A program made the translations under genes and the position numbers. A DNA stretch of 64,000 bases from Rhodococcus rhodnii NBRC 100604 (GTDB lineage: Bacteria; Actinomycetota; Actinomycetes; Mycobacteriales; Mycobacteriaceae), in contig NZ_BCXD01000014.1 of assembly GCF_001894925.1 (NCBI RefSeq), forward strand, positions 1-64,000, read 5' to 3'. The notes beneath the pieces were generated by a model. It was not told the DNA's origin. It made no database searches and saw nothing but the letters and a program-made list of their open reading frames with translations. Positions 33,648-45,771 of this stretch are shown in pieces. The stretch's first letter is position 1, and every line of letters begins with the position of its first letter.

Positions 33648-33739
33648 CGCACACCCCTTCTCGTCGGTACGTGTCGTGTCGGGATCCGGTGGAGCCCGCT
33701 TCCCTCGGGCCCCACCGGATCGCCGATGTCATCGAACTC

Positions 33740-34432
33740 TTGTTCGACACGTTCAATATAGCCGTACCCACCGACACCGGAAAGGGGACCGTCGTCAACG
33801 CCGTCACGCCGCCGCGCGTCATCGACCTCGACGCCGAGTCGTTCCACGCCCACATGGGCGAAGCGCTCTCGGTGTACGTCGCGGCGATGAACTATCCCCG
33901 CGGCACCGAGACCCACCGGGCACCGATGTGGGCCGAGCACGTCCACCGCCCCGGATGGGCGGCCGTCGGCGCGTTCGCGCAGGCCGACGATCCCGCGATC
34001 GGACCCGCGGGCCGGCTCGTCGGCATCGCCTACGGCTATCGCGGCGAGCCCCGGCAGTGGTGGCACCAGCAGGTGAGGACGGGTCTGCGCCACAGCGGCT
34101 GGACGCACTCCGCGATCGACGCGCTGCTCGGCGACTACTTCGAACTCACCGAACTCCATGTCGATCCGGCGGCGCAGGGAGCGCGGATCGGCGAGATGCT
34201 GCTGCTGCGCCTGCTCACCGGCCGTCCCGAGAGCGCCGTCCTCCTCTCGACCCCGGAGGTGCACGCCGAGGACAACCGCGCCTGGCGGCTCTACCGCCGT
34301 CACGGATTCCGCGACGTGCTCCGCCGTTTTCGTTTCGCCGGCGACGCCCGCCCCTTCGCGGTGCTCGGCCGCGCACTGCCGCTCGGCACAGACCCCACGG
34401 AGCCGCAGCCGGCTCGGGAAGGACGCTCGTGA
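33740..34432 (+). CDS. GNAT-family acetyltransferase, Rv2170-like
   Basis: About 230 residues from TTG 33740, but the start is unclear. The fold begins at 'PPRVIDLDAESFHAHMGEAL' and 'YVAAMNYPRGTETHRAPMW'; the acetyl-CoA loop is 'ELHVDPAAQGARIGEMLL' and 'NRAWRLYRRHGF' is the usual last helix. The best ribosome-binding site (GGAAAGGGGA, 33779-33788) is followed only by GTC codons (33791, 33794); the first ATG is 33854, within the conserved part. Position next to lppM-type genes matches Rv2170. The stop overlaps crtO (GTGA), so it heads the carotenoid operon. Acceptor substrate unknown. Confidence 0.75.
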   Translation: MFDTFNIAVPTDTGKGTVVNAVTPPRVIDLDAESFHAHMGEALSVYVAAMNYPRGTETHRAPMWAEHVHRPGWAAVGAFAQADDPAIGPAGRLVGIAYGYRGEPRQWWHQQVRTGLRHSGWTHSAIDALLGDYFELTELHVDPAAQGARIGEMLLLRLLTGRPESAVLLSTPEVHAEDNRAWRLYRRHGFRDVLRRFRFAGDARPFAVLGRALPLGTDPTEPQPAREGRS

Positions 34433-35994
34433 CCACCGACGCCGTCGTCATCGGATCGGGGCACAACGCGCTCGTCGCGGCGTGCTACCTCGCGGACGCG
34501 GGCTGGTCCGTGGAGGTGCTCGAGAAGGACACCGTCGTGGGCGGCGCGACCTCGACCGTCGAGCGCTTCCCCGGTCATCGCGTCGACCGCGGCTCGTCCG
34601 CGCACCTCATGATCCGGCACACCGGCATCGTCGAGGAACTGGGACTTGGCGATCACGGCCTGCGCTATCTCGACTGCGACCCGTGGGCGTTCGCACCGCC
34701 GCCGCCCGGCGAGGACGGTCCGGGCATCGTGTTCCGTCACGACCTCGACGCGACGTGCGCGTCGATCGCGGCGGCGTGCGGCGACCGCGACGCCCGCGCC
34801 TATCGCCGGTTCGTCGAGATCTGGGGGCCGCGCAGTGCGCGCGTGCTGCGCGCCTTCTCGTCGCCGCCGACCGGCGGCGCGCTCGTGTCGTCGTTCTGGG
34901 GAATCGGCGACGCCGACGGCGGCGGTGACCTGAGCCGCCAGTTCCTCACGACGGGCGACGCGCTGCTCGACGAGTTCTTCGACAGCGAGCGACTCAAGGC
35001 CGCGCTGTCGTGGTTCGGCGCGCAGTCGGGGCCGCCGATGTCCGAGCCCGGCACCGCCCCGATGGTCGGGTTCGCAGCGCTCATGCACACCCTTCCCCCG
35101 GGCAGGGCCGTCGGGGGCAGCGGTGCGCTCGCCGACGCACTCGTGTCGCGGCTCCGCGCGTCCGGCGGCATCGTCGCACCCGGCGACGCCGCGGTGTCGG
35201 TCCGGCGCGAGGGCGACGCGTGGGTCACCGTCACGGCAGCGGGGCGGGCCGTGCGCTCGCGCGTCGTCGTCGCCGGCTGCCACATCGCGACGACGCTCGA
35301 TCTCCTCGGCAGGGGCGGTTACGACGCCGACCGCATCGCCCGGTGGCGGCGGTCGATCCGGGTCGGCCCGGGCCTGGGCTTCGTCGTCCGGCTCGCGACG
35401 ACCGACGTCCCCCGCTACGGCGAGCACGACGTCGCCGAGACGGCGACGGGACTGCAACTGCTCGCCCACGACCGCGCGGCCCTGCACGCGGCGCACGGCG
35501 CGGCGATGGGCGGCGAACTCCCCCCGCGCCCCGTCGTCCTCGCGATGAGTTTCAGCGCGCTCGATCCGACGATCGCACCCGAGGGCCGTCATCAGGTGAC
35601 GGCGTGGTCGCAGTGGCACCCGTACCGGCTCTCGGGCGGACGCTCGTGGGACGACGTCGGCGACGCCGAGGCGGACCGCGTTCTCGCGGAACTGGATCGG
35701 TACGCCCCCGGGTTCTCCGGCGGCGTGCTCGATCGCCACGTGCAGACTCCCGCGGACATCGAACGCGAACTGGGGATGATCGGCGGGAACGTCATGCACG
35801 TCGAGATGTCGCTCGACCAGATGCTGCTGTGGCGGCCGCTCCCCGAGCTCGCGCGGTATCGCGTTCCGGATGCACCCGGCCTGTATCTCACGGGAGCCTC
35901 GACGCACCCGGGCGGCGGTGTCAACGGCGCCTCGGGACGCAGTGCCGCACGCGCCGCGCTGCGTGACCGCCGTCGCCGCCGGTGGCGCCGGTGA
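34429..35994 (+). CDS. crtO: CrtO-type beta-carotene ketolase
   Basis: 521 residues. An FAD-dependent oxidoreductase of the phytoene-desaturase superfamily. The dinucleotide loop 'AVVIGSGHNALVAACYLADAG', then 'LEKDTVVGGATSTVERFPGH', 'DRGSSAHLMIRHTGI', 'GMIGGNVMHVEMSLDQM' and 'YLTGASTHPGGGVNGASGR' agree block for block with the R. erythropolis CrtO I recall, which adds a 4-keto group to beta- or gamma-carotene rings. By contrast a plain CrtI is shorter in the middle part. The GTG start overlaps the GNAT stop (34429-34432) and its stop overlaps cruF. The substrate ring must come from a cyclase encoded elsewhere. Confidence 0.88.
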   Translation: MTTDAVVIGSGHNALVAACYLADAGWSVEVLEKDTVVGGATSTVERFPGHRVDRGSSAHLMIRHTGIVEELGLGDHGLRYLDCDPWAFAPPPPGEDGPGIVFRHDLDATCASIAAACGDRDARAYRRFVEIWGPRSARVLRAFSSPPTGGALVSSFWGIGDADGGGDLSRQFLTTGDALLDEFFDSERLKAALSWFGAQSGPPMSEPGTAPMVGFAALMHTLPPGRAVGGSGALADALVSRLRASGGIVAPGDAAVSVRREGDAWVTVTAAGRAVRSRVVVAGCHIATTLDLLGRGGYDADRIARWRRSIRVGPGLGFVVRLATTDVPRYGEHDVAETATGLQLLAHDRAALHAAHGAAMGGELPPRPVVLAMSFSALDPTIAPEGRHQVTAWSQWHPYRLSGGRSWDDVGDAEADRVLAELDRYAPGFSGGVLDRHVQTPADIERELGMIGGNVMHVEMSLDQMLLWRPLPELARYRVPDAPGLYLTGASTHPGGGVNGASGRSAARAALRDRRRRRWRR

Positions 35995-36833
35995 CGCGGC
36001 TCGCGATGGCCGCGAGCATCGTCGGTGGGGCGGCGATCGCCGCGCAGATCCTGTACCCGCTCGTGTCGGGTCGCGCGCTCGACGCCGTGACCGTCGCCGT
36101 CGTCGTCCTGCTCGCGAGTGCGTCGATCGTGCACGCGCTCGCGACGCGGGGCCTGCGGTTCGCGGTGGTGCTCGTCGTCGCGACGGCGGGAGTGGGTTAC
36201 GCCTCCGAGGTGCTGGGCACGATCACCGGTATTCCCTACGGCGCGTACCACTACGTTCCCGACGGGCTCGGGCCTGTCGTCGCGGACGTGCCGGTCGTCG
36301 TTCCGTTCGCGTGGACGGCGGGGTTCTATCCGGTGTGGATCGTCGCGACGATCGTGTGCTCGCGCCTTCGGCCCCGTATGCGGGCCGTCGCACGGGTCCC
36401 GCTCGTCGCGGTGGGAATGGTCGGCTGGGATCTCTACCTCGACCCGCAGATGGTCGCGGACGGCAGGTGGGTGTGGCATCGCGCCGACGCGGGACTGCCG
36501 GGCCTCGAGCACATCCCGCTGACGAACTACGCGGGCTGGTTCGCCGTCGCGATCCTCATGGCGATCGTCGTGACCGTCGGTGGCGGCGACGGCGCGCGCC
36601 GAGGCGCCGATCTCGCGCGCGACGCACTGCCCGTCGTGCTGTTCGCGTGGACGTGGCTCGGCTCTGCGCTCGCGCACGCAGTCTTCCTCGACGCCCCCGA
36701 GCTCCGGTGGTCCGCGATGTACGGATTCGTCGGGATGGGCCTGCTCGGTGTTCCCGCCGTCGTGGTGTTCGCGGCACGTACACACCGAACCCCGCCAACT
36801 GCCGGACAGTCCGGGTCCCGGCTGGCACGATGA
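35991..36833 (+). CDS. cruF: carotenoid biosynthesis membrane protein, CruF-type 1',2'-hydratase
   Basis: 280 residues with about seven hydrophobic helices (DUF422). Conserved blocks: 'GYASEVLGTITGIPYGAYHY', 'WTAGFYPVWIV', 'GWDLYLDPQMV' and 'HIPLTNYAGWF'. Characterised CruF proteins of cyanobacteria and Deinococcus hydrate the psi end of a monocyclic carotene to a tertiary 1'-hydroxyl, which is then glycosylated. The glycosyltransferase two genes downstream fits that. I chose GTG 35991 because it overlaps the crtO stop as GTGA; GTG 35982 is also in frame. The acidic residues inside helices are likely catalytic, but the mechanism is not certain. Confidence 0.85.
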   Translation: MTRLAMAASIVGGAAIAAQILYPLVSGRALDAVTVAVVVLLASASIVHALATRGLRFAVVLVVATAGVGYASEVLGTITGIPYGAYHYVPDGLGPVVADVPVVVPFAWTAGFYPVWIVATIVCSRLRPRMRAVARVPLVAVGMVGWDLYLDPQMVADGRWVWHRADAGLPGLEHIPLTNYAGWFAVAILMAIVVTVGGGDGARRGADLARDALPVVLFAWTWLGSALAHAVFLDAPELRWSAMYGFVGMGLLGVPAVVVFAARTHRTPPTAGQSGSRLAR

Positions 36834-37624
36834 CCTCCGTGCCCGCCACCTCCTCGCCCCCGCGGGGCGCCGCCGTACCGCCGCGCCGTCGCCGCCGGCT
36901 GGTGACGATTCTGGCGCTGCTCGCGCTCGTGGTCCCCGCGCTGACCGGCTGCCTGCGCGTACAGGTGTCGATGGGGGTGTCGGCGGACGATCGCGTGTCC
37001 GGCCAGATCGTCGCGGCCGCGATGCCCACGGGTCCCGACGACGTCGGCCCGCAGCTCACCCCGCCGGATTCGCTGGCCGGCAAGATCCGGGTCGCACCGT
37101 ATTCGCAGGACGGGTACGTCGGCACGCAGGCGTTCTTCACCGATCTGTCGTTCGGCGACGTCGACCAGCTCGCGACGATGTACCCGCAGGCGGCGGGTGC
37201 GTTTCAGCTGTCGCTGAGCCGCTCGGGCGACGAGGTGACACTCGACGGACTCGTCGACCTCGAGAGCCTGCCCGCGCAGGGGTCCGACGTCCAGCTGACG
37301 GTCGCCTTCCCCACCCGGGTCGGGACGACCGACGGGATCCGGGAGGGCGATTCGATCGTCTCGTGGCGGCTGCCGCCGGGTGAGCAGTCGAGCGTCTCCG
37401 CGGAGGTCCGCTATCAGGATCCGACGACGCGCAGCCTCGCGGGCTGGGCGGCCCTGCTGATCGGGGTGTCGCTGGCGTTCGCGGCGATCGTCGGCGGACT
37501 CGCGTATCTGGGCCGCAACCGCGAACCCGCCGTCGGCAGCGGCCGCTCCTCCGGCGCCGGTGACGATCACGGCGCGGATCCCGACGATCCGGCTGCCGAA
37601 CCGCACGACCGCGTCTCCGTGTGA
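36830..37624 (+). CDS. lppM: LppM-family lipoprotein
   Basis: 264 residues. After a basic tail, the hydrophobic segment ends in lipobox 'VPALTGC', giving an exported lipoprotein. The DUF3153 domain begins 'LRVQVSMGVSADDRVSGQIVA' and ends near residue 210; a second, C-terminal transmembrane helix ('WAALLIGVSLAFAAIVGGLAY') and an acidic tail follow. This lipoprotein-plus-C-terminal-helix layout is that of mycobacterial LppM (Rv2171), which is linked to intracellular trafficking of M. tuberculosis; its biochemical role is unknown. Here it is translationally coupled at both ends (ATGA 36830-36833, GTGA 37621-37624) to carotenoid genes. Confidence 0.88.
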   Translation: MTSVPATSSPPRGAAVPPRRRRRLVTILALLALVVPALTGCLRVQVSMGVSADDRVSGQIVAAAMPTGPDDVGPQLTPPDSLAGKIRVAPYSQDGYVGTQAFFTDLSFGDVDQLATMYPQAAGAFQLSLSRSGDEVTLDGLVDLESLPAQGSDVQLTVAFPTRVGTTDGIREGDSIVSWRLPPGEQSSVSAEVRYQDPTTRSLAGWAALLIGVSLAFAAIVGGLAYLGRNREPAVGSGRSSGAGDDHGADPDDPAAEPHDRVSV

Positions 37625-38790
37625 CGCTCGCCGAACCGTGGGCTCGCGGCGTGCGCGGCGCCGTCGGGGCGGGCTCGTCGCTCGCGGTCGCGAGTGCCGT
37701 CGTCACCGCGGTCAACGCCGTCACCGCTCCTGTCCTCCGGCTCGGCGCCGCACAAGGGACGGTCGGCGAGCCGGTGGCGGTGATCGTGCCCGCGCGCGAC
37801 GAAGCCACCCGAATCGCCGCCGTCGTCGGCGATCTGCGCCGCCAGCGCGGCGTCCCGGACCTGCGGATCGTGGTGGTCGACGACGACTCGCGCGACGGCA
37901 CCGCCGCCCTCGCCCGGGGCGCGGCGGGCGACGACGAGCGGGTGTCGGTCGTCCGGCTCACCGAGGATCCGCCCGGTGGCTGGCTGGGCAAGCAGTGGGC
38001 GTGCGCCCGCGGCGTCGCGCATGCCGGGGCCGCCGGGATCGTCGTGTTCGTGGACGCCGACGTGCGGCTCGGCCCGGACGCCGTCGCGCGGGCGTGCGCG
38101 GCGCTGCGCGACCGGGACGCGGCGCTCGTGTCGCCGTGGCCGTTCCAGGTCGCGGGGTCGTGGGGCGAGCAGTTGATGCAACCGATGCTGTGCTGGTCGT
38201 GGGCGTCGACGTTGCCGCTGGTCGCCGCTGCGCGATCGCAGCGCCGCTCGACGGTGGTGGCCGTCGGGCAGTTCCTCGTGGTCGACCGCGCCGCGTACGA
38301 CGCCGTCGGCGGCCACGGCGCCGTCGCGGCGAGCCCGACCGAGGATCTGGCTCTGGCGCGAGCGCTGCGCGACGCGGGCGGACGCACGACGGTGCTGTGG
38401 GCGGGCGGCGACGCCCGCTGCCGCATGTACGACGACGCGCGCGCGGCGCGCGAGGGCTACTCGCGCTGGCTGTGGTCGGCGTTCGGCGGGGGTGGAGGGG
38501 CGCTCGCGGTGTCGGGTCTCGCGGCACTCGCGTATCTCGTCCCGCCCGTCGCACTGGTGACCTGCCGTGGACCCGAGCGACGCTGGGCCGCAGCGGGAAC
38601 CGCGGCGGCCGTCGCCTCTCGCGCGACGGCGCGCGCGCTCGAGCGGGGACGACCCCACGTCGCCGACGTCGCGGCCGGCGCGGCTCATCCGCTCGCCGTC
38701 GTCACCGCCCTCGTGCTCACTGCGCGCTCGCACGCGCTGAGACGGCGCCGGCGACTCGAGTGGAAAGGCCGCAGGACGGCTCGTGAGTGA
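37621..38790 (+). CDS. GT2 glycosyltransferase, probable carotenoid glycosyltransferase
   Basis: 389 residues. GT-A fold: 'EPVAVIVPARDEATRI' and 'VVVDDDSRDGTAALA' bind the nucleotide sugar, 'VVFVDADVRLGPDAV' carries the DxD metal site, 'PPGGWLGKQWACARG' is the block seen in CrtQ/CruG-type enzymes that act on polyprenoid alcohols, and 'ASPTEDLALARALR' holds the catalytic ED. Hydrophobic segments at the N-terminus (about residues 14-35) and near 'LAALAYLVPPVALV' anchor it in the membrane. Its neighbours crtO and cruF suggest that it glycosylates the 1'-hydroxyl made by CruF. The sugar donor cannot be told. GTG start overlaps the lppM stop. Confidence 0.8.
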   Translation: MTLAEPWARGVRGAVGAGSSLAVASAVVTAVNAVTAPVLRLGAAQGTVGEPVAVIVPARDEATRIAAVVGDLRRQRGVPDLRIVVVDDDSRDGTAALARGAAGDDERVSVVRLTEDPPGGWLGKQWACARGVAHAGAAGIVVFVDADVRLGPDAVARACAALRDRDAALVSPWPFQVAGSWGEQLMQPMLCWSWASTLPLVAAARSQRRSTVVAVGQFLVVDRAAYDAVGGHGAVAASPTEDLALARALRDAGGRTTVLWAGGDARCRMYDDARAAREGYSRWLWSAFGGGGGALAVSGLAALAYLVPPVALVTCRGPERRWAAAGTAAAVASRATARALERGRPHVADVAAGAAHPLAVVTALVLTARSHALRRRRRLEWKGRRTARE

Positions 38791-38835
38791 TCTTCCGGCG
38801 CGGGGACCGGACACTCATGCACGAGCGCGAAGCGC

Positions 38836-39846
38836 CTACCCGACGGAACGGACGGGCGCGGAATCGGCCGCGGTGCGGATCCGGCCACCGAGCCGTTCGA
38901 GCACCTCGCCCGTCGCCCGCGCGAAGTTCAGTGTGATGAAGTGCAGCCCGGGCGCGCCCTCGTCGACGAGCCGCTCGCACATCTCCGTCGCGATGTCGAT
39001 TCCTTCGGCACGCACGGCGGCGCGGTCCTCCTCGGGACCCGAGCCCGCGGCACGCACGAGGCGCTCCTCGAGGTGACGAGGCAGCCGCGAACCCGAGAGT
39101 TCCATCATGCGGCGCACCGAGCGCAACGACGTGATCGGCATGATCTCGGGAACGATCGGCTTCGCGCCCTGCTCGGGGTCGAACGCCGCGACCCGATCGC
39201 GCAGCCGCAGATAGTCCTCGACGTCGAAGAACACCTGGGTGATCGAATACTCCGCGCCCGCACGCAGTTTCGCCGTGAGGTACCGCGTGTCGTGGTCGAG
39301 GTCCGGCGAACGGTGATGTCCCTCGGGGAACGATGCGACGCCGACGTGGAAGTCGCCGAGATCGCGGACGAGCCGCACGAGTTCGTGCGCGTACTCCACG
39401 CCCTCGGGGTGGCGACGCCACTCGCCGAGCGGATCGCCGGGCGGATCCCCCCGGAGCACGAGGATGTTGCTGATCCCCCGGTCGGCGTACGCACCCACCA
39501 TCGAGCGCAGTTCGTCGATCGAATGATCGACCGCCGTGAGGTGCGCGACGGGCAGCAGCGTCGTCTCCTCCGCGAGCTGTCCCGTGACCCGGACCGTGCG
39601 ATCCCGCGTCGAGCCGCCCGCGCCGTACGTCATGGACACGAACGCAGGCCCGAGCCGCTCGAACACCCGCACCGCGCGCCACAGCCGCTGCTCGGCCGCT
39701 TCGTCACGCGGGGGCGAGAACTCGACGGAGAACGGGATCCTGGTGTCGTCGCCGCCGCGCAGCCGATCCACGATCGACGGCGTGGTGGTGCGCCAGCCCG
39801 CACTCGCGCGGCCCCGGACGGTATCGAAGATCACGTCGTCCAGCAT
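38836..39846 (-). CDS. methylenetetrahydrofolate reductase family protein, Rv2172c-like
   Basis: 336 residues. TIM-barrel of the MTHFR family: 'FSVEFSPPRDEAAEQRLW' has the catalytic Glu, 'FVSMTYGAGGSTRDRT' and 'HLTAVDHSIDEL' bind folate, 'ILVLRGDPPGD' and 'QVFFDVEDYLR' follow, and 'HFITLNFARATGEVLERL' closes the barrel. It would reduce 5,10-methylene-THF to 5-methyl-THF for methionine synthesis. It holds the place of Rv2172c, between lppM and idsA2; mycobacterial members of this subgroup have been reported to lack flavin, so cofactor use should not be assumed. Convergent to the glycosyltransferase (45 bases) and divergent from idsA. Confidence 0.88.
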   Translation of the reverse strand: MLDDVIFDTVRGRASAGWRTTTPSIVDRLRGGDDTRIPFSVEFSPPRDEAAEQRLWRAVRVFERLGPAFVSMTYGAGGSTRDRTVRVTGQLAEETTLLPVAHLTAVDHSIDELRSMVGAYADRGISNILVLRGDPPGDPLGEWRRHPEGVEYAHELVRLVRDLGDFHVGVASFPEGHHRSPDLDHDTRYLTAKLRAGAEYSITQVFFDVEDYLRLRDRVAAFDPEQGAKPIVPEIMPITSLRSVRRMMELSGSRLPRHLEERLVRAAGSGPEEDRAAVRAEGIDIATEMCERLVDEGAPGLHFITLNFARATGEVLERLGGRIRTAADSAPVRSVG

Positions 39847-39977
39847 AGAGACGACGTCGCGGGGCCCGGGCAGGTGGCCGGGCGCCGCAGCCCATCCCGG
39901 CCGCCGTGCGCGCGCCGATACAGTGGGGGCACCCGTCGGCCGGTCCTGTCCGCTGCCCGTCCTGCCTGGAGGAAGCC

Positions 39978-41093
39978 CTGTCCACACCCACCACGCCCGG
40001 CCCCGCGGGGCAGGACGCATCCGCCGCAGTCCTCTCGCCCGCCCGAGTCGAAACTGCGCTCGCCGACTTCCTCGCGCTGCGTGCGCCCACCGCACGCACC
40101 ATCGGCGCGTCCTACGCCGCGGGCCTCGACGCGCTGTCGCGGTTCGTGCTGCGCGGCGGCAAGCGAGTCCGGCCGGCGTTCGCGTGGACGGGCTGGGTCG
40201 GCGCCGGCGGCGATCCCGCACACGACGCCGCGGACGCCGTCGTCTCGGCCGTCTCGTCGCTCGAACTGATCCAGGGCTGCGCCCTCGTCCACGACGACAT
40301 CATCGACGCGTCCACGACGCGCCGGGGCTTCCCCACCGTGCACGTCGAGTACGCCGGACTGCACCGCGAGCAGGGCTGGTCGGGCGATCCGCTGCACTTC
40401 GGGACGTCCGCAGCGATCCTGCTCGGCGATCTCGCGCTCGCGATGGCCGACGACATGCTGCGCGAGTCGGGCATCGACGACGCCGCGCTGCGTCGCGCCC
40501 AGCCGGTGTGGTCGGCGATGCGCACCGAGGTGCTCGGCGGGCAGTTCCTCGACATCGTCGCCGAGGCGTCGCGCGACGAGTCGATCGACACCGCGTACGC
40601 GATCGACCGCTACAAGACGGCCGCGTACACGATCGAACGGCCGCTGCATCTGGGTGCCGCGATCGCGGGTGCCGACGAGGGCCTCGTCGCGTCGTACCGG
40701 GAGTTCGGCACCGACATCGGCGTCGCGTTCCAGTTGCGTGACGACCTGCTCGGCGTCTTCGGCGATCCCGAGCTCACCGGTAAGCCGTCCGGTGACGATC
40801 TGCGCGCGGGCAAGCGCACGGTCCTCGTCGCGAGTGCGCTCGAGACGGCCGACCGCGACGATCCCGTGGCGGCCGCCGACATCCGGGCGTCGCTCGGGAC
40901 GGCACTCACCGACGGCGACGTCGCACGCCTGCGTGCCCGGCTGACCGATCTCGGCGCCGTCGCGGACGTCGAGGCGCAGATCGACCGGCTCACCGGACGC
41001 GCGCTCACGGCCCTGGCCGAGTCGACGGCGACGCCCGACGCGAAGGACGCCCTCGCGGCAATGGCCGAGACCGCGACGCGGCGGACTGCGTGA
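39978..41093 (+). CDS. idsA: geranylgeranyl diphosphate synthase (IdsA/CrtE-type)
   Basis: 371 residues. Trans-prenyltransferase making a C20 (possibly C15-C25) diphosphate from IPP. First Asp-rich motif 'ALVHDDIIDASTTRRG', second 'FQLRDDLLGVFGDP', and 'LRGGKRVRPAFAW' for substrate binding. The apparent start is CTG 39978, four bases after GGAGGA (39968-39973); the only upstream in-frame GTG (39906) lies before a TACAGT hexamer (39919-39924) that looks like the -10, so it would not be transcribed. It is in the Rv2173 (idsA2) position and overlaps crtI by GTGA, so it should supply GGPP to the carotenoid route. Confidence 0.9.
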   Translation: MSTPTTPGPAGQDASAAVLSPARVETALADFLALRAPTARTIGASYAAGLDALSRFVLRGGKRVRPAFAWTGWVGAGGDPAHDAADAVVSAVSSLELIQGCALVHDDIIDASTTRRGFPTVHVEYAGLHREQGWSGDPLHFGTSAAILLGDLALAMADDMLRESGIDDAALRRAQPVWSAMRTEVLGGQFLDIVAEASRDESIDTAYAIDRYKTAAYTIERPLHLGAAIAGADEGLVASYREFGTDIGVAFQLRDDLLGVFGDPELTGKPSGDDLRAGKRTVLVASALETADRDDPVAAADIRASLGTALTDGDVARLRARLTDLGAVADVEAQIDRLTGRALTALAESTATPDAKDALAAMAETATRRTA

Positions 41094-42670
41094 GCACCAG
41101 GGCCGTTCCCGGCCCGGTGCGCCACGTCGTCGTGGTCGGCGCCGGACTCGCGGGCCTGTCGGCCGCGCTGCATCTGCGTGCCTCGGGCCGCGACGTCACG
41201 CTCCTCGAGGCCGCCGGCACCCCCGGTGGCCGCGTCGGCACGTACCGGCTCCGCACCCCCGACGGCGACGAGTTCGACATCGACTCCGGCGCGACCGTCC
41301 TCACGATGCCCTCGCTGGTCACCGCGGCGATCGGCGGCGTCGAGACGGATCCACCGCTGCGGATCACCCGCCTCGATCCCGCCTATCACGCACGGTTCGC
41401 CGACGGCGCGTCGCTCGACGTCCACAGCGAGCCGGACCGGATGGCGGCGGAGGTGACCCGGTTCGCCGGGCCCGACGAGGCGATCCGGTACCGGCGGCTG
41501 CGACGGTGGCTCGGCGACGTCTTCGAGGCCGAGTTCGACGACTTCATGGACGCCGACTTCGACTCGCCGCTCGACCTCGTGGCGTCACCGCGCTCGCTGC
41601 GGGCGATCGTCCGGCTCGTCCGGCTCGGCGGCTTCGGCAGCCTCGGCCGGCGCGTCGGCTCGATCCTCCGGGACGACCGGCTGGCCCGGATCTTCACGTT
41701 CCAGGCGCTGTACGCGGGCGTCGCGCCGCGCGACGCGCTCGGCGTCTACGGCGCGATCGGCCACATGGACACGAGCATGGGCGTGTGGTTCCCGTCGGGC
41801 GGGATGCGGTCGATCGCCGAGGCGATGACCGACGCCGCGCGCCGGGCGGGCGTCGACGTCGTGTTCGACGCGCGGGTCGACGCGCTCGACGTCGCGGGTG
41901 GCCGCGTCACCGCGGTCCGGACCGCCGACGCGGTGTATCCGTGCGACGCCGTCGTCCTCACCCCGGACACCCACGTCGTGGACTCTCTGCTGGCCCCGCA
42001 CGGGCTGGCTCCCCGGCGGCCGGTGCGGTCGTCGCCGTCGGCGGTCGTGCTGCACGGGTCGATCCCGGTGAGCGTCACCGACCGGTGGCCGGCACGCCGT
42101 CACCACACGATCGACTTCGGGGACGCGTGGGATGCGACGTTCCGCGAGATCACGGCGCGCGCGGGCCGCGGCAGGCTCATGACGGATCCGTCGTTCCTCG
42201 TCACCCGTCCCGCGACGACCGATCCGGACCTGATCATCGGGTCCGGTGAGACCGCCCGCGAGCCGTTGTCGGTACTCGCGCCGTGCCCCAACCTGCGGAG
42301 CGCGCCGTTCGACTGGGACCGGCTCGGCCCGCACTACGCGCGCGAGATCGTCACGACGCTCGAGCGGCGCGGCTTCACCGGAATCGCCGCGCACTTCGAC
42401 GTCGCCCGCGTCGACACCCCCGCGACGTGGCTCGCCGACGGGATGCGGGACGGCTCGCCGTTCGCCGCCGCACACGTCTTCGCCCAGACCGGACCCTTCC
42501 GGCGCCGCAACACGGTGCGCGGGCTCGCCAACGCGCTGCTCGCCGGATCGAGCACCGTCCCCGGCGTCGGCGTCCCGACCGTCCTGCTGTCGGGCAAGCT
42601 CGCCGCGGAGCGGATCACGGGCAGCCACACGCGAGCTCGGGACGTCGATTCGACCGTTTCGCCCGATTGA
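41090..42670 (+). CDS. crtI: phytoene desaturase CrtI
   Basis: 526 residues. FAD-dependent desaturase turning phytoene into lycopene-type polyenes. N-terminal 'HVVVVGAGLAGLSAALHL' and 'TLLEAAGTPGGRVGTY' bind FAD; 'FTFQALYAGVAPRDALGVYG' and 'GVWFPSGGMRSIAEAMTDA' are CrtI blocks; the C-terminal 'TVPGVGVPTVLLSGKLAAERI' is the second flavin motif. It differs clearly from the CrtO-type paralogue at 34429 (shorter, different middle). The GTG start overlaps the idsA stop. The last ~15 residues after 'RITGSHTR' look non-conserved. Confidence 0.9.
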   Translation: MSTRAVPGPVRHVVVVGAGLAGLSAALHLRASGRDVTLLEAAGTPGGRVGTYRLRTPDGDEFDIDSGATVLTMPSLVTAAIGGVETDPPLRITRLDPAYHARFADGASLDVHSEPDRMAAEVTRFAGPDEAIRYRRLRRWLGDVFEAEFDDFMDADFDSPLDLVASPRSLRAIVRLVRLGGFGSLGRRVGSILRDDRLARIFTFQALYAGVAPRDALGVYGAIGHMDTSMGVWFPSGGMRSIAEAMTDAARRAGVDVVFDARVDALDVAGGRVTAVRTADAVYPCDAVVLTPDTHVVDSLLAPHGLAPRRPVRSSPSAVVLHGSIPVSVTDRWPARRHHTIDFGDAWDATFREITARAGRGRLMTDPSFLVTRPATTDPDLIIGSGETAREPLSVLAPCPNLRSAPFDWDRLGPHYAREIVTTLERRGFTGIAAHFDVARVDTPATWLADGMRDGSPFAAAHVFAQTGPFRRRNTVRGLANALLAGSSTVPGVGVPTVLLSGKLAAERITGSHTRARDVDSTVSPD

Positions 42671-42841
42671 TTTCGGCATCGCGCGAGTGGACTCGCATCG
42701 CCGACGCGGCGTGGGGCGCGTACGTCACACCCGGAGGTGGCACTAGACTGACCGGGCGATCACGCAGTTCGGAGCTCCCGGGGCGTGTCCACACCGACAC
42801 CGTCCACACGACATCGAGTCCGCGGGGAGGAACTGAAAACG

Positions 42842-44416
42842 ATGGCATCCGCTGACGGCAGTGCCTTGCGTGTCCGTGCCCGGAGCTGGGCGGACTTCGT
42901 CCGCGCACCCGAGGGACACGCTGCACTGCTCGGCGTCCTCGGCGCGGTTCTCATCACCTTCGGCGGATTCGGTGCCGGTTCCGTCCGCCGCGAGGACCCG
43001 CTGCTCGAAGCGCTGTTCCTGTCGTGGCTGCGATTCGGCCACGGTCAGTGGATCTCGACCGTCCTCGTGTGGGGCGGCGTCATCGCGATGATCACGGCAT
43101 GGGTGCGGCTCGGCCGCCGCACCATCGCGGGCGACGTCTCGGTCCGCTGCCTCATCGGCGTGTGCGCCGCCTGGGTGACCCCGCTGCTCGTCGCGGTCCC
43201 GATGTTCAGCCGGGACGCGTACTCCTACCTCGCCCAGGGCGCGCTGCTCCGCGACGGCTTCGACCCCTACGCCGTCGGCCCCGTCGTCAACCCGGGCCTG
43301 CTGCTCGACAACGTCTCCAACGTCTGGACGACGACGACGGCCCCGTACGGCCCGCTGTTCCTGCTCATCGCGCAGGGAATCACGATGATCTCGGGCGACA
43401 ACGTCGTCGTCGGCACGCTGCTGCTGCGGCTCGTCATGCTGCCCGGTCTCGTCCTGACGCTGTGGGCGGTGCCACGGCTCGCGCGCTACCTCGGCGGCAG
43501 CGCGTCCGTCGCCGTGTGGCTCGCCGTCCTCAACCCGCTCGTCCTCGTCCACCTCATCGGTGGCGTGCACAACGAGGTCCTCATGGTCGGCCTGATGACG
43601 GCCGGCCTCGTCCTCGCCCTCGAGCGCAAGCACCTCGCGGGCATCGCGCTCGTGTCGGCCGGTGTCGCCGTCAAGGCCACCGCGGGTGCGGCGCTGCCGT
43701 TCATCGTCTGGATCTGGATGGCGCACCGGCGCAAGCAGGCCGCCGAGGAGGGCAAGCCGCCGCCCAATCCGTTCACGTCGTTCGTGCGCACCGCCGGCGC
43801 GGGCGCGGGCCTGTTCGTCGCGATCTTCGGTGCAGTCTCGTTCGCGGCGGGCGTCGGGCTGGGCTGGATGACAGCCCTGTCCGGCTCCGCGAAGATCATC
43901 AACTGGCTGTCGCTGCCGACGATCCTCGCCCACATCGTGACGGTCGGGACGTCGTGGTTCGCCGATCTGCGGCTCACCGAGGTCCTGGGCGTGACGCGCA
44001 CGATCTGCGGCGCGGCGATGGTCGCGATCGCCATCGCCGCGTGGTGGCGGTTCCGCCGCACCGAACGCGACGCCGTCCTCGGCACGCTGGTCGTGCTCGT
44101 CGCGATCGTCGTCCTCTCCCCCGCCGCGCTGCCGTGGTACTACTCCTGGCCGCTCGCGATCGCCGCGTGCTTCCCGCTCGGCGCGCGCACCCTCACCGTG
44201 CTCGTCGGCCTGTCGACGTGGCTCATGCTCGTGTTCAACCCCGACGGCTCGATCGGCCTGTACAACCTCGCCCACGTCGCCGTCGCGACGCTCGTCGCCC
44301 TGGTCGCGGCCCGCTCGCTGTACACGATCGATCCGCTGCGGCTGCGGAGTCAGCGGCCACCGGGTGGTGACGCCGTGTCCGCGTCCGGCGAGCGCCCGCC
44401 CGTGGGCGCAGCATGA
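42842..44416 (+). CDS. mptA: alpha-(1->6)-mannopyranosyltransferase MptA
   Basis: 524 residues with about a dozen membrane helices. GT-C polyprenyl-phosphomannose-dependent enzyme that extends the alpha-1,6-mannan core of lipomannan and lipoarabinomannan. The acidic catalytic loop is 'FSRDAYSYLAQGALL'; 'GGVHNEVLMVGLMTAGL' and 'PWYYSWPLAIAACFPLG' are family blocks. It matches Rv2174 in position. ATG 42842 is 11 bases after GGGGAGGA; an upstream in-frame GTG is possible. A TAGACT hexamer (42744-42749) may be its own promoter, 170 bases after crtI. The C-terminal ~30 residues are polar and probably cytoplasmic. Confidence 0.92.
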   Translation: MASADGSALRVRARSWADFVRAPEGHAALLGVLGAVLITFGGFGAGSVRREDPLLEALFLSWLRFGHGQWISTVLVWGGVIAMITAWVRLGRRTIAGDVSVRCLIGVCAAWVTPLLVAVPMFSRDAYSYLAQGALLRDGFDPYAVGPVVNPGLLLDNVSNVWTTTTAPYGPLFLLIAQGITMISGDNVVVGTLLLRLVMLPGLVLTLWAVPRLARYLGGSASVAVWLAVLNPLVLVHLIGGVHNEVLMVGLMTAGLVLALERKHLAGIALVSAGVAVKATAGAALPFIVWIWMAHRRKQAAEEGKPPPNPFTSFVRTAGAGAGLFVAIFGAVSFAAGVGLGWMTALSGSAKIINWLSLPTILAHIVTVGTSWFADLRLTEVLGVTRTICGAAMVAIAIAAWWRFRRTERDAVLGTLVVLVAIVVLSPAALPWYYSWPLAIAACFPLGARTLTVLVGLSTWLMLVFNPDGSIGLYNLAHVAVATLVALVAARSLYTIDPLRLRSQRPPGGDAVSASGERPPVGAA

Positions 44417-44435
44417 CGTGCGCGCCGCCCCTGCC

Positions 44436-45374
44436 GTGACCACCGAGTCGTACCGCCACTGCCGGAACCTCGCCGCGTCGCACGGCCGCACGTACTTCCT
44501 CGCGACCCGGTTGCTCGCACGCGAGCACCGGCCCGCGATCCACGCGCTCTACGGCTTCGCACGCGCGACCGACGACATCGTGGACACCGGCACCATGGAC
44601 GACGCGGGGGCCGCCCCGGACGCCGTGCGCGACGCCGCACTCGACGCGATCGAGCGCGCGCTGCGCGACGAGTGGTCCGGCTCCGGCTCACCCGGTTCTC
44701 TCGTCGACGGGCCGGCGAGCACGCTGGGGCCCGTCCTGCCGGCGTTCTTCGACACCGTCGCGGCCTACGGCATCGAGCACGACTACTTCTTCGCGTTTCT
44801 CGAGTCGATGCGGATGGACGTCCCCGGTTCGCGCCTGCACCGGCGCGCGTACCGGACGATGGCCGAACTCGACGAGTACATGTACGGGTCGGCGGCGGTC
44901 ATCGGCCTGCAGGTGCTTCCCGTGCTCGGCGCCGACACCGCTACGCGTCCCTACGCGGCGGCACTCGGCGAGGCGTTCCAGCTCACCAACTTCGTCCGCG
45001 ACGTCGGCGAGGATCTCGATCGCGGACGTCTCTATCTGCCGGCCGACGAACTCGCGGCGTTCGGTGTCGACGAGGAGTTGCTGCGGCGCTGCCGCCGCGA
45101 CGGCCACGACGATCCGCGGGTGCGGCGAGCCCTCGCCCACGTCGTCGCGCACACGCGCGCCCGGTATCGGGCCGCGGAACCGGGCCTCACGATGCTCGGC
45201 CGGCGGGCGGGCGCCACCGTGACGGCCGCCTTCACCCTCTACGGTGAGATTCTCGACCGGATCGAGGCCGAGGACTTCGCGGTGCTGCATCGCCGCGCCG
45301 TCGTTCCGCGCAGCAGGCGCCTCGCCGTCGCGGCACGCGAGCTCGCGAAGATGACGGCGCCCCGCGCGTGCTGA
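44436..45374 (+). CDS. crtB: phytoene synthase CrtB
   Basis: 312 residues. Condenses two GGPP molecules to phytoene. Squalene/phytoene synthase motifs: 'YGFARATDDIVDTG' (first Asp-rich), 'YMYGSAAVIGLQVLPVLG', 'LTNFVRDVGEDLDRGRLYLP' (second Asp-rich, DVGED) and 'YRAAEPGLTMLG'. I chose GTG 44436; GTG 44418 just after the mptA stop is also in frame. Only 19 bases separate it from mptA, so the mannosyltransferase and phytoene synthase are probably co-transcribed. Confidence 0.93.
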   Translation: MTTESYRHCRNLAASHGRTYFLATRLLAREHRPAIHALYGFARATDDIVDTGTMDDAGAAPDAVRDAALDAIERALRDEWSGSGSPGSLVDGPASTLGPVLPAFFDTVAAYGIEHDYFFAFLESMRMDVPGSRLHRRAYRTMAELDEYMYGSAAVIGLQVLPVLGADTATRPYAAALGEAFQLTNFVRDVGEDLDRGRLYLPADELAAFGVDEELLRRCRRDGHDDPRVRRALAHVVAHTRARYRAAEPGLTMLGRRAGATVTAAFTLYGEILDRIEAEDFAVLHRRAVVPRSRRLAVAARELAKMTAPRAC

Positions 45375-45402: not shown

Positions 45403-45771
45403 TCAGAAGGCCATCGCCTGAGCGCGGCGAACGACCTCGCGGGCGGAGTCGGTGTGCAACGCGTCCACCGGCCGTCCCGGCAGCGACTCGTCCTCGCGGA
45501 AGAGCCACTCGAGCGCCTCCTCGTCGTCGAAACCTCCGTCGCGCAGCACCGACACCAGCCCGGGGACCCAGCGCAGGATGTCGCCGGCGTCGTCGAGGAA
45601 CAGCGCGGGAACACCGATGATGCCGTTGCGACGGACGGCGAGCAGCTGATGGTCGCGCAGCATCTGGTGCACCTTGGTGACGCTGACGCCGAGATGCTCT
45701 GCCACGTCGGGCAACGGAAGGAGGGAGACGGACTCGTCGAGAATGTCCTGGACGTACGGGATGGCGCTCAC
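45403..45771 (-). CDS. Rv2175c-like DNA-binding regulator
   Basis: 122 residues. N-terminal winged helix-turn-helix ('LPLPDVAEHLGVSVTKVHQML', then 'RDHQLLAVRRNGIIGVPALFL') followed by a short helical domain ('GFDDEEALEWLFREDESL'). It matches Rv2175c, a DNA-binding protein phosphorylated by PknL in M. tuberculosis, and like there it is divergent from pknL. GTG 45771 was chosen: the longer frame upstream lacks conservation. The 174 bases shared with pknL probably hold promoters for both, e.g. TACGAT (45884-45889) for pknL. Confidence 0.88.
   Translation of the reverse strand: MSAIPYVQDILDESVSLLPLPDVAEHLGVSVTKVHQMLRDHQLLAVRRNGIIGVPALFLDDAGDILRWVPGLVSVLRDGGFDDEEALEWLFREDESLPGRPVDALHTDSAREVVRRAQAMAF

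What the first reader, a model, noticed from the sequence alone, without database searches (positions are those of the whole stretch)
33740..45374. Carotenoid pathway genes threaded one by one between conserved mycobacterial genes
Seen: crtO, cruF, a GT2 gene, idsA/crtE, crtI and crtB lie between Rv2170-, lppM-, Rv2172c-, mptA- and Rv2175c-like genes. Known: in M. tuberculosis Rv2169c-Rv2175c is contiguous with only idsA2 left of this set. Inferred: the ancestor carried an interleaved carotenoid locus which slow-growing mycobacteria lost gene by gene, or mycolate relatives gained it. Predicted product: GGPP to phytoene (CrtB), polyene (CrtI), one ring made by a cyclase encoded elsewhere, 4-keto (CrtO), 1'-hydroxyl (CruF) and 1'-glycoside (GT2), possibly further acylated with mycolate as described for Rhodococcus carotenoid glucosides.
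Basis: partly seen in the sequence, partly recalled or inferred. Interest (0 to 1): 0.75.

Follow-up and report, generated by a model that had tools for sequence, protein, structure and literature searches.

The report
Ancient carotenoid locus behind mycobacterial genes
A pigment-making gene set in this bacterium sits woven among genes well known from the tuberculosis group, and comparison with many relatives indicates an old arrangement that mycobacteria and corynebacteria later stripped of its pigment genes.

Summary
Between 33689 and 45771 lie, in order: GNAT, CrtO, CruF, LppM, GT2, MetF(-), IdsA, CrtI, MptA, CrtB, Rv2175c-like(-), then PknL-like. The host is Rhodococcus-type (inferred); a full-length lycopene cyclase lies elsewhere. 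The order is standard for the family: 79 of 128 spanning loci are complete, 78 of 79 with the same order and strands. Seven other families of the order keep GNAT or CrtO, CruF, GT2, then an inverted MetF. In a class sample, opposite-strand MetF follows CruF in 39 of 63 CruF genomes, 35 of them outside the order. So the locus is old and its absence in Mycobacterium and Corynebacterium (inferred codes) is loss. CruF and GT2 vanish together although LppM lies between them (84 both, 43 neither, 1 CruF only of 128; independent pairs 6.7 of 7, p 0.016), supporting hydroxylation followed by glycosylation. Codon use is not foreign; CrtO, CruF, GT2 and CrtI follow the family's phylogeny, CrtB less so. 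The pathway is known in Rhodococcus and Nocardia; I did not find the age of the locus or the coupled losses in print.

The parts
33689..34432 (+). GNAT acetyltransferase, Rv2170-like by position; overlaps CrtO by 4 bp
   Evidence: PF13508 27.1 bits; gene; an in-frame start giving a 4-bp overlap is available in 56 of 105 family junctions
34429..35994 (+). CrtO-type carotenoid ketolase
   Evidence: NF045689 281.6 bits, below the 1000 cut-off; just upstream of CruF in 7 outer loci; family split clean with 6 outer rows, support 0.997
35982..36833 (+). CruF, carotenoid 1'-hydratase
   Evidence: PF04240 113.5 bits; TIGR03460 88.1 bits, below its 154.7 cut-off; the only PF04240 match in the genome
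36902..37624 (+). LppM
   Evidence: PF21946 188.7 bits
37621..38790 (+). GT2 glycosyltransferase, CruG/HpnB-like; overlaps LppM by 4 bp
   Evidence: PF00535 69.6 bits; HpnB 123.5 bits, CruG 88.8 bits, both below cut-off; co-lost with CruF
38836..39846 (-). MetF, canonical methylenetetrahydrofolate reductase
   Evidence: PF02219 280.1 bits; divergent MetF/IdsA-like pair in 73 of the 95 class-sample genomes whose MetF was typed
39906..41093 (+). IdsA2-type prenyl diphosphate synthase, predicted GGPP synthase (Cys at FARM -5)
   Evidence: NF042416 422.9 bits, below the 600 cut-off; DDIID at residue 130; FARM -5 residue
41117..42670 (+). CrtI phytoene desaturase (alternative start 41090)
   Evidence: TIGR02734 397.5 bits, over cut-off; alternative start
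42842..44416 (+). MptA, alpha-1,6-mannosyltransferase
   Evidence: TIGR03459 'crt_membr' 609.2 bits, over cut-off
44436..45374 (+). CrtB phytoene synthase; the only PF00494 match in the genome
   Evidence: PF00494 218 bits; DxxxD motifs at residues 46 and 189
45403..45771 (-). Rv2175c-like DNA-binding protein
   Evidence: gene; a relative found in 127 of 129 rows; the name is by position, recalled
45945..47975 (+). PknL-like Ser/Thr kinase
   Evidence: gene; a relative found in 127 of 129 rows; the name is by position, recalled

Best explanation
This is the family's standard carotenoid locus, kept in an arrangement older than the mycolate bacteria. IdsA makes GGPP, CrtB phytoene, CrtI lycopene. 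A CrtL-type cyclase encoded elsewhere closes one end to gamma-carotene. CrtO adds a 4-keto group to the ring, CruF adds water at the open end (1'-OH) and the GT2 enzyme puts a sugar on that hydroxyl, giving a 1'-hydroxy-4-keto-gamma-carotene glycoside that may then be acylated. Shown here: gene content, order, age of the order, descent with the family for CrtO, CruF, GT2 and CrtI, co-loss of CruF with GT2. Inferred: each reaction, single-ended cyclisation, the sugar, acylation. In evolution, the older locus had CruF next to GT2, followed by an inverted MetF and IdsA; LppM came between CruF and GT2 in this family, and an MptA-type gene lies between CrtI and CrtB here and in some other families. 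Mycobacterium, Corynebacterium (inferred codes) and several other lineages later lost the carotenoid genes at this site, leaving GNAT, (LppM), IdsA, MptA, Rv2175c-like and PknL-like genes side by side; most of those sampled carry a phytoene synthase-type gene elsewhere.
For: Same order and strands in 78 of 79 complete family loci. CruF directly next to GT2 in 18 of 20 outer loci carrying both (9 families; the 18 lie in 8), with an inverted MetF downstream in 13 and IdsA behind it in 12. Class sample: CruF followed by opposite-strand MetF in 39 of 63 CruF genomes, 20 of 27 families, 35 genomes outside the order; CruF-MetF(-)-IdsA(+) in 33 of those 39. CrtO, CruF, GT2 and CrtI trees separate family from outer rows with none misplaced (support 0.993-1.0); for CrtI this holds also after dropping 6 outer rows that are probably CrtD (17 outer rows left, 0.993). 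Their distances follow the core genes (r 0.75-0.89, against 0.74-0.89 for core genes). Codon use of the five crt genes not foreign (z -1.73 to +1.30 among 53 window genes). CruF/GT2 84 both, 43 neither, 1 CruF only of 128; independent pairs same way 6.7 of 7, never opposite, median p 0.0156, against 1.2 for CrtI, 1.1 for CrtB, 1.3 for CrtO. Full-length cyclase in the own genome and in 17 of 18 genus mates. R. erythropolis NBRC 15567 (L105) has CrtO but no CruF/GT2, and strain AN12 of that species is described as making only monocyclic gamma-carotene derivatives (PMC7502451). C. glutamicum uses IdsA as main GGPP synthase for carotenoids although its crt operon lies elsewhere (PMC5401885).
Against: CrtO, CruF, GT2 and IdsA score below the NCBIfam equivalog cut-offs, so their exact substrates are not assured. 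CrtB fits vertical descent least: r 0.68, and three family rows (L022, L027, L103) fall with the outer families; two outer IdsA rows (L053, L055) fall with the family. At class level only CruF, MetF and IdsA-like genes were placed, not the whole set; 22 of 63 CruF genomes have no listed MetF on the CruF contig and 2 have it far away. The family tree is unrooted; direction rests on the outer families. MptA-like genes between CrtI and CrtB also occur in families f12 and f14, so when MptA came in is unresolved. Co-loss of CrtI with CrtB did not reach significance (3.6 of 6, p 0.125). R. rhodochrous, also listed in PMC7502451 as making monocyclic gamma-carotene derivatives and known for glycosides, was not among my named loci. 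No pigment was measured.
Confidence: 0.8

Rival explanations
1. The carotenoid genes entered the mycolate lineage late, one by one or as a block, by horizontal transfer into a conserved backbone; for CrtO this was proposed in print (PMC2889829).
For: PMC2889829 (passages) infers horizontal transfer of CrtO into Rhodococcus, Nocardia and Dietzia from distant lineages. CrtB rows L022, L027 and L103 look replaced.
Against: CrtO sits just upstream of CruF in 7 outer loci of families f9, f11 and f16. No foreign codon use. Clean family splits for CrtO, CruF, GT2 and CrtI. The CruF-MetF-IdsA arrangement is found across the class. I had no CrtO from other phyla, so an older transfer into the ancestor is not excluded.
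Confidence: 0.1
2. The interleaving is functional: carotenoid glycoside and lipoglycan (MptA, LppM) synthesis are co-expressed as one envelope programme.
For: Overlapping or near-overlapping reading frames across the two gene sets in the window (LppM/GT2 4 bp overlap; MptA/CrtB 19 bp apart), with an in-frame start for a 4-bp overlap in 37 of 84 LppM-GT2 and 41 of 95 MptA-CrtB junctions.
Against: MptA and IdsA persist where all crt genes are gone (Mycobacterium and Corynebacterium codes). LppM mostly does not follow CruF in independent pairs. Shared transcripts can be a by-product of position. No expression data.
Confidence: 0.15
3. The locus makes a different product: for example a bicyclic keto-carotenoid (canthaxanthin-like) or an aromatic monocyclic glycoside.
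For: CrtO of R. erythropolis AN12 gave canthaxanthin in a beta-carotene-making E. coli, and Rhodococcus sp. 1CP makes OH-chlorobactene glucosides by a route ascribed to CrtU (PMC7502451).
Against: One full-length CrtL-type cyclase in the genome; AN12's cyclase made almost only gamma-carotene (PMC7502451); CruF is expected to need an open end (recalled). CrtU was not searched for in this genome.
Confidence: 0.25

Closest known systems
Rhodococcus carotenoid genes (R. erythropolis AN12: crtLm, crtO; Rhodococcus sp. ANT_H53B locus tags crtO 09100, crtE 09125, crtI 09130, crtB 09140)
   Same: Same enzymes; the ANT_H53B tag numbers imply the same interleaved spacing (PMC7582328 table passages; my inference).
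   Different: The passages read do not remark on the interleaving. AN12 (gamma-carotene derivatives) is of a species whose sampled member (L105) lacks CruF and GT2 here.
Nocardia carotenoid cluster family GCF 3 with separate cyclase family GCF 10 (PMC7413640)
   Same: CrtE, CrtB, CrtI without a cyclase in the cluster, cyclase elsewhere; glycosylation like sioxanthin suggested (passages).
   Different: The passages give no gene order, age or loss history.
Sioxanthin pathway of Salinispora (Richter et al. 2015; not held; known from citing papers)
   Same: Glycosylated carotenoid from a sub-clustered pathway; family f15, which I take for Micromonosporaceae from genome size only, has GNAT-CruF-GT2-CrtD-like-MetF(-)-IdsA.
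   Different: A CrtD-like gene present, and CrtO, LppM and MptA not found at the site, in the three f15 loci seen there (L054, L056, L057).
M. tuberculosis Rv2170-Rv2176 block (order recalled)
   Same: GNAT, LppM, MTHFR, IdsA2, MptA, Rv2175c, PknL in the same order.
   Different: No crt genes; MTHFR is of another Pfam family (PF19345) in the 4 of 12 spanning Mycobacterium-coded loci that have one; Trp at FARM -5 of Rv2173 (PMC12035560) where 128 of 129 rows here have Cys, Gly or Ala.

Membership tests
C40 carotenoid pathway (CrtB, CrtI) | phytoene synthase of PF00494 with aspartate-rich motifs | tested here: met
   218 bits; DxxxD at 46 and 189
C40 carotenoid pathway (CrtB, CrtI) | CrtI-type desaturase over the curated cut-off | tested here: met
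   TIGR02734 397.5 bits, cut-off 238.1
CrtO ketolase | NF045689 over its curated cut-off | tested here: not met
   281.6 of 1000 bits, best of its matches, nearly full length; so CrtO-like, not a filed equivalog
CruF hydratase | PF04240 over the gathering score | tested here: met
   113.5 bits, cut-off 25
CruF hydratase | NCBIfam CruF equivalog cut-offs | tested here: not met
   TIGR03460 88.1 of 154.7 bits; NF045693 67.6 of 400 bits; NF041333 56.9 of 300 bits
CruG carotenoid glycosyltransferase | NF045692 over its curated cut-off | tested here: not met
   88.8 of 600 bits; HpnB 123.5 bits is closer, also below its 379.25 cut-off
CruG carotenoid glycosyltransferase | acts with CruF (present and absent together) | tested here: met
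   84 both, 43 neither, 1 CruF only of 128; independent pairs median p 0.0156
Rhodococcus-type monocyclic carotenoid pathway | CrtL-type lycopene cyclase in the genome | tested here: met
   PF05834 165.6 bits at G000:C3:209163-210209; NF045687 163.7 of 500 bits and TIGR01790 198.4 of 209.5 bits, both below cut-off
Rhodococcus-type monocyclic carotenoid pathway | cyclase closes one end only | not testable with these tools
   biochemical property; reported for AN12 CrtLm (PMC7502451)
Rhodococcus-type monocyclic carotenoid pathway | acylated, e.g. mycolated, glucoside | not testable with these tools
   reported for R. rhodochrous RNMS1 (PMC4365757); no obvious glycoside acyltransferase in the locus
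MptA | TIGR03459 over its curated cut-off | tested here: met
   609.2 bits, cut-off 439.4
Mycobacterial MTHFR (Rv2172c, PF19345) | PF19345 match | tested here: not met
   at E <= 0.001 the window protein matches PF02219 only

The most novel reading that the evidence does not exclude
The interleaving is kept by selection: carotenoid glycolipid and lipoglycan synthesis form one co-expressed envelope unit, with IdsA serving both carotenoids (GGPP) and, in its short-chain form, the lipid carriers that MptA depends on; loss of CrtI and CrtB in Mycobacterium then turned IdsA2 from a pigment enzyme into a lipid-carrier enzyme.
Probability: 0.15. Interest if true: 0.75.

Novelty: new member of a known kind. 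Interest (0 to 1): 0.5.

Why it matters
It gives direction to a piece of mycobacterial evolution: the conserved idsA2-mptA-lppM block studied in the tuberculosis bacterium looks like what remains of a much older carotenoid locus. This bears on inference from neighbourhood. PMC12035560 says that a role of Rv2173 in glycosyl carrier lipids is hinted at by its place next to MptA, but in 97 of 128 family loci CrtI stands between the two genes. It also speaks against the published idea that Rhodococcus, Nocardia and Dietzia took up CrtO from distant lineages after they had split from their relatives, and it supplies a partner for CruF that co-loss, not only annotation, supports.

Tried and rejected
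Foreign composition of the crt genes: codon use not aberrant. Late separate insertion: rejected by outer-family order and clean tree splits. CrtC as the hydratase: PF07143 in 0 of 21 genus genomes, but the control rang in no genome, so this shows little. Loss of crt genes as the driver of a chain-length change in IdsA: FARM -5 is Trp in only 1 of 129 family rows (L045) and Cys in the other 11 Mycobacterium-coded rows, so the change does not simply follow crt loss; this counts against the second half of my novel case. Carotenoid neighbours of the cyclase gene: none recognised by eye from the first residues of the gene calls around it (no family search of those neighbours). Reading g14 as Mycobacterium and g19 as Corynebacterium is my inference from PF19345 (4 of 12 loci), genome size and the C. 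glutamicum control.

Rows dropped before counts: of 224 loci, 4 (L001-L003, L224) and 21 duplicates were set aside, leaving 199; 168 were of the family or named, 128 of these spanned the site and were counted, 31 were of other families. The other 40 of the 168 did not meet the spanning test (an upstream marker, a downstream marker, IdsA and MptA all found), mostly loci that contig or fetch ends cut short. One automatic genus label ('Gloeocapsa', 3 spanning rows) is a look-up error; the record titles are all of mycolate genera. In one search, 6 of 23 outer CrtI rows are probably CrtD; the split was repeated without them. In one search, G061 was counted among the 30 although its locus (L044) was seen only from MptA onward.
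Full report
What is there. With a codon-model gene call and Pfam and NCBIfam scans, the window holds in order: GNAT 33689-34432(+), CrtO-like 34429-35994(+), CruF 35982-36833(+), LppM 36902-37624(+), GT2 37621-38790(+), MetF 38836-39846(-), IdsA2-type synthase 39906-41093(+), CrtI 41117-42670(+), MptA 42842-44416(+), CrtB 44436-45374(+), an Rv2175c-like gene 45403-45771(-) and a PknL-like kinase 45945-47975(+). The last two are named by position, from recall. GNAT/CrtO and LppM/GT2 overlap by 4 bp, CrtO/CruF by 13 bp with the starts chosen. The genome (4.46 Mb, 70 contigs) has one PF00494 gene, CrtB of this locus, and one PF04240 gene, this CruF. A CrtL-type cyclase lies on another contig, and full-length matches occur in 17 of 18 other genomes of the same genus (the exception is 75% complete). 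The gene calls around it show no obvious carotenoid gene. Genus code g1 includes contigs of the same length, with identical MptA segments, as records of Rhodococcus wratislaviensis, R. tibetensis and Rhodococcus sp. HNM0569, so the host is Rhodococcus-type.

One correction. The gene in the place of Rv2172c is a canonical MetF (PF02219). Of the 12 spanning Mycobacterium-coded loci, 4 have room for a gene there, and all four match PF19345 (Mycobacterial MTHFR) instead; 8 have gaps of at most 169 bp. BLASTP between the window MetF and one of the four gives E 0.077.

How common the arrangement is. I took 100 regions around MptA, IdsA or CruF, 40 more around MptA and 80 named loci around MptA, and marked genes by tblastn with the window proteins. 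After removing 21 duplicates and 4 unsuited loci, 199 remained; 168 belong to the family or to named relatives and 128 of these span the site. Of the 128, 79 carry all five (CrtO, CruF, GT2, CrtI, CrtB), 12 CrtO+CrtI+CrtB, 8 CrtO alone, 3 CrtI+CrtB, 3 lack CrtB only, 2 lack CrtI only, 1 has CrtO+CruF, and 20 have none, among them 12 of 12 Mycobacterium-coded and 3 of 3 Corynebacterium-coded loci. Of the 79 complete loci, 78 have the same order and strands; the exception, L103 (Antrihabitans stalactiti), has CrtB beyond the Rv2175c-like gene. Because the named scan kept the best matches to the window's MptA, the sample leans towards Rhodococcus and Nocardia.

Age. Twenty loci from nine other families of the order have both CruF and GT2. 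In 18 of 20 the two are neighbours within 251 bp (the two f4 loci have 1.8-2.1 kb between them); GNAT (7) or CrtO (7) stands just upstream in 14 of 20; an inverted MetF follows in 13, in seven families, and IdsA behind it in 12. In one locus each of f15 and f9 the gene after GT2 matches a CrtD model best (320.6 and 323 bits, below its 580 cut-off). LppM was never found between CruF and GT2 there, so its place between them is a feature of this family. MptA-like genes between CrtI and CrtB occur also in f12 and f14 loci (L058, L059, L067, L068), while other f9, f11 and f14 loci have none there, so the time of that insertion is open. Going wider, in 118 genomes of the class CruF occurs in 63, and in 39 of these MetF lies 0.15-13.7 kb downstream on the other strand; 35 of the 39 are outside the order, in 18 families; 22 of the 63 have no listed MetF on the CruF contig and 2 have it far away. 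A divergent MetF/IdsA-like pair is seen in 73 of 95 genomes with a typed MetF, 26 of them without CruF, and CruF-MetF(-)-IdsA(+) in 33 of the 39. The basic arrangement is thus shared across the class. I did not place CrtI, CrtB and GT2 at that level.

Vertical descent. Pairwise protein distances of CrtO (r 0.879), CruF (0.84), GT2 (0.752) and CrtI (0.892) follow the mean of the core genes about as well as core genes do (GNAT 0.758, MptA 0.794, Rv2175c-like 0.743, PknL 0.863, AroG 0.885). CrtB is lowest, 0.68. In FastTree trees family and outer rows separate with none misplaced for CrtO, CruF, GT2 and CrtI; for CrtB three family rows (L022, L027, L103) fall on the outer side, probably replacements; for IdsA two outer rows fall on the family side (L053, L055). 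Six of the 23 outer CrtI rows are probably CrtD; without them the split is unchanged (17 outer rows, none misplaced, 0.993). CrtO had only 6 outer rows. Codon-usage residuals of the five crt genes are -1.73 to +1.30 s.d. among 53 window genes. This speaks against the transfer of CrtO into Rhodococcus, Nocardia and Dietzia proposed in PMC2889829 (passages read), although I had no CrtO of other phyla and cannot exclude an older transfer into the ancestor.

Loss by function. On a tree of seven non-carotenoid genes (129 rows, FastTree) the fewest changes are CrtO 5, CruF 10, GT2 11, CrtI 8, CrtB 7, LppM 2, MetF 2. In independent pairs that differ in CruF, GT2 goes the same way in 6.7 of 7 and never the other way (median p 0.0156), while CrtI (1.2), CrtB (1.1) and CrtO (1.3) do so rarely, and LppM, which lies between the two, mostly does not change (its summary line for LppM was cut, the listed pairings show it). 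CruF and GT2 are therefore lost as a unit without their intervening neighbour, as expected if GT2 uses the hydroxyl that CruF makes. CrtI with CrtB points the same way (3.6 of 6, never opposite) without significance (p 0.125). The one exception for CruF/GT2 is L215 (a genus mate with CrtO and CruF but neither GT2, CrtI nor CrtB at the site; its PF00494 gene is elsewhere).

What the stripped lineages do. Of 30 genomes without CrtI and CrtB at the locus (one, G061, seen only in part), 22 have a PF00494 gene elsewhere; in Mycobacterium-coded genomes it is 10 of 13. Of the eight others put in the same search, seven have their match at the locus (two of them also elsewhere) and G401, which keeps CrtI but not CrtB at the locus, has it elsewhere. 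So the site was often vacated while the enzyme type stayed. In C. glutamicum the main GGPP synthase for carotenoids is IdsA, encoded apart from the crt operon (PMC5401885, passages), as if the first enzyme had stayed at the old site. In PMC12035560 (passages) a role of Rv2173 in glycosyl carrier lipids is said to be hinted at by its place beside MptA; in 97 of the 128 family loci CrtI is present, and in all 97 it lies between these two genes. The Trp that is held to limit chain length in Rv2173 (same paper) is rare: 1 of 129 family rows, while 113 (the window included) have Cys, 11 Gly and 4 Ala. That paper's short-chain assignment also rests on its structures and on other work, which this does not touch.

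Product. Rhodococcus pigments of the predicted kind are known: R. rhodochrous RNMS1 makes a monocyclic carotenoid glucoside esterified with mycolic acid (PMC4365757, passages); Rhodococcus sp. [quoted passage not shown] R. erythropolis AN12 makes monocyclic gamma-carotene derivatives with a one-sided cyclase, and its CrtO is a ketolase (PMC7502451, section read). The sampled R. erythropolis NBRC 15567 (L105) keeps CrtO and lacks CruF and GT2. The single reactions, the sugar and acylation stay inferred.

What is in print. [quoted passage not shown] PMC7582328 (table passages) lists Rhodococcus locus tags that imply the same spacing. PMC5401885 names mptA in the legend of a figure of crt clusters. 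I found no statement of the interleaving as such, its age, or the coupled losses in searches, of which I saw listings and, for the papers cited, passages; the library holds only open-licence papers. So the gene set is a new member of a known kind; the evolutionary reading is one I did not find in print.

Noticed in passing
L050 8599-12365 (genus code g18): Between IdsA and MptA, where CrtI stands in relatives, lie four genes; the first resembles a ferric-siderophore binding lipoprotein, the rest look by eye like permeases and an ATPase.
   Followed up: partly
L045, L046, L047, L196 between LppM and IdsA: Mycobacterium-coded loci carry PF19345 (MTHFR_2) in the place where relatives carry canonical MetF; 8 of 12 spanning loci have neither. 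An in-place exchange or extreme divergence of a folate enzyme.
   Followed up: partly
L176, L183 (genus code g74): The block is rearranged: AroG and PknL lie on one side, GNAT and mraZ on the other, inverted relative to IdsA and MptA; no crt genes at the site and no PF00494 match in either genome.
   Followed up: no
L186, L187 (Nocardia code g15): PknL and the Rv2175c-like gene are inverted relative to relatives.
   Followed up: no
L083 11480-14253 (family f7): Two MptA-like genes in tandem behind IdsA, no crt genes recognised at the site.
   Followed up: no
L215 (G008, same genus): Keeps CrtO and CruF but lacks GT2, CrtI and CrtB at the locus; its only PF00494 match is on another contig.
   Followed up: partly
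window 11377-31794: What looks like a division and cell-wall (dcw) cluster from a mraZ-like to a DivIVA-like gene lies just upstream, so the carotenoid locus sits at its flank; names recalled from the first residues of the gene calls.
   Followed up: no
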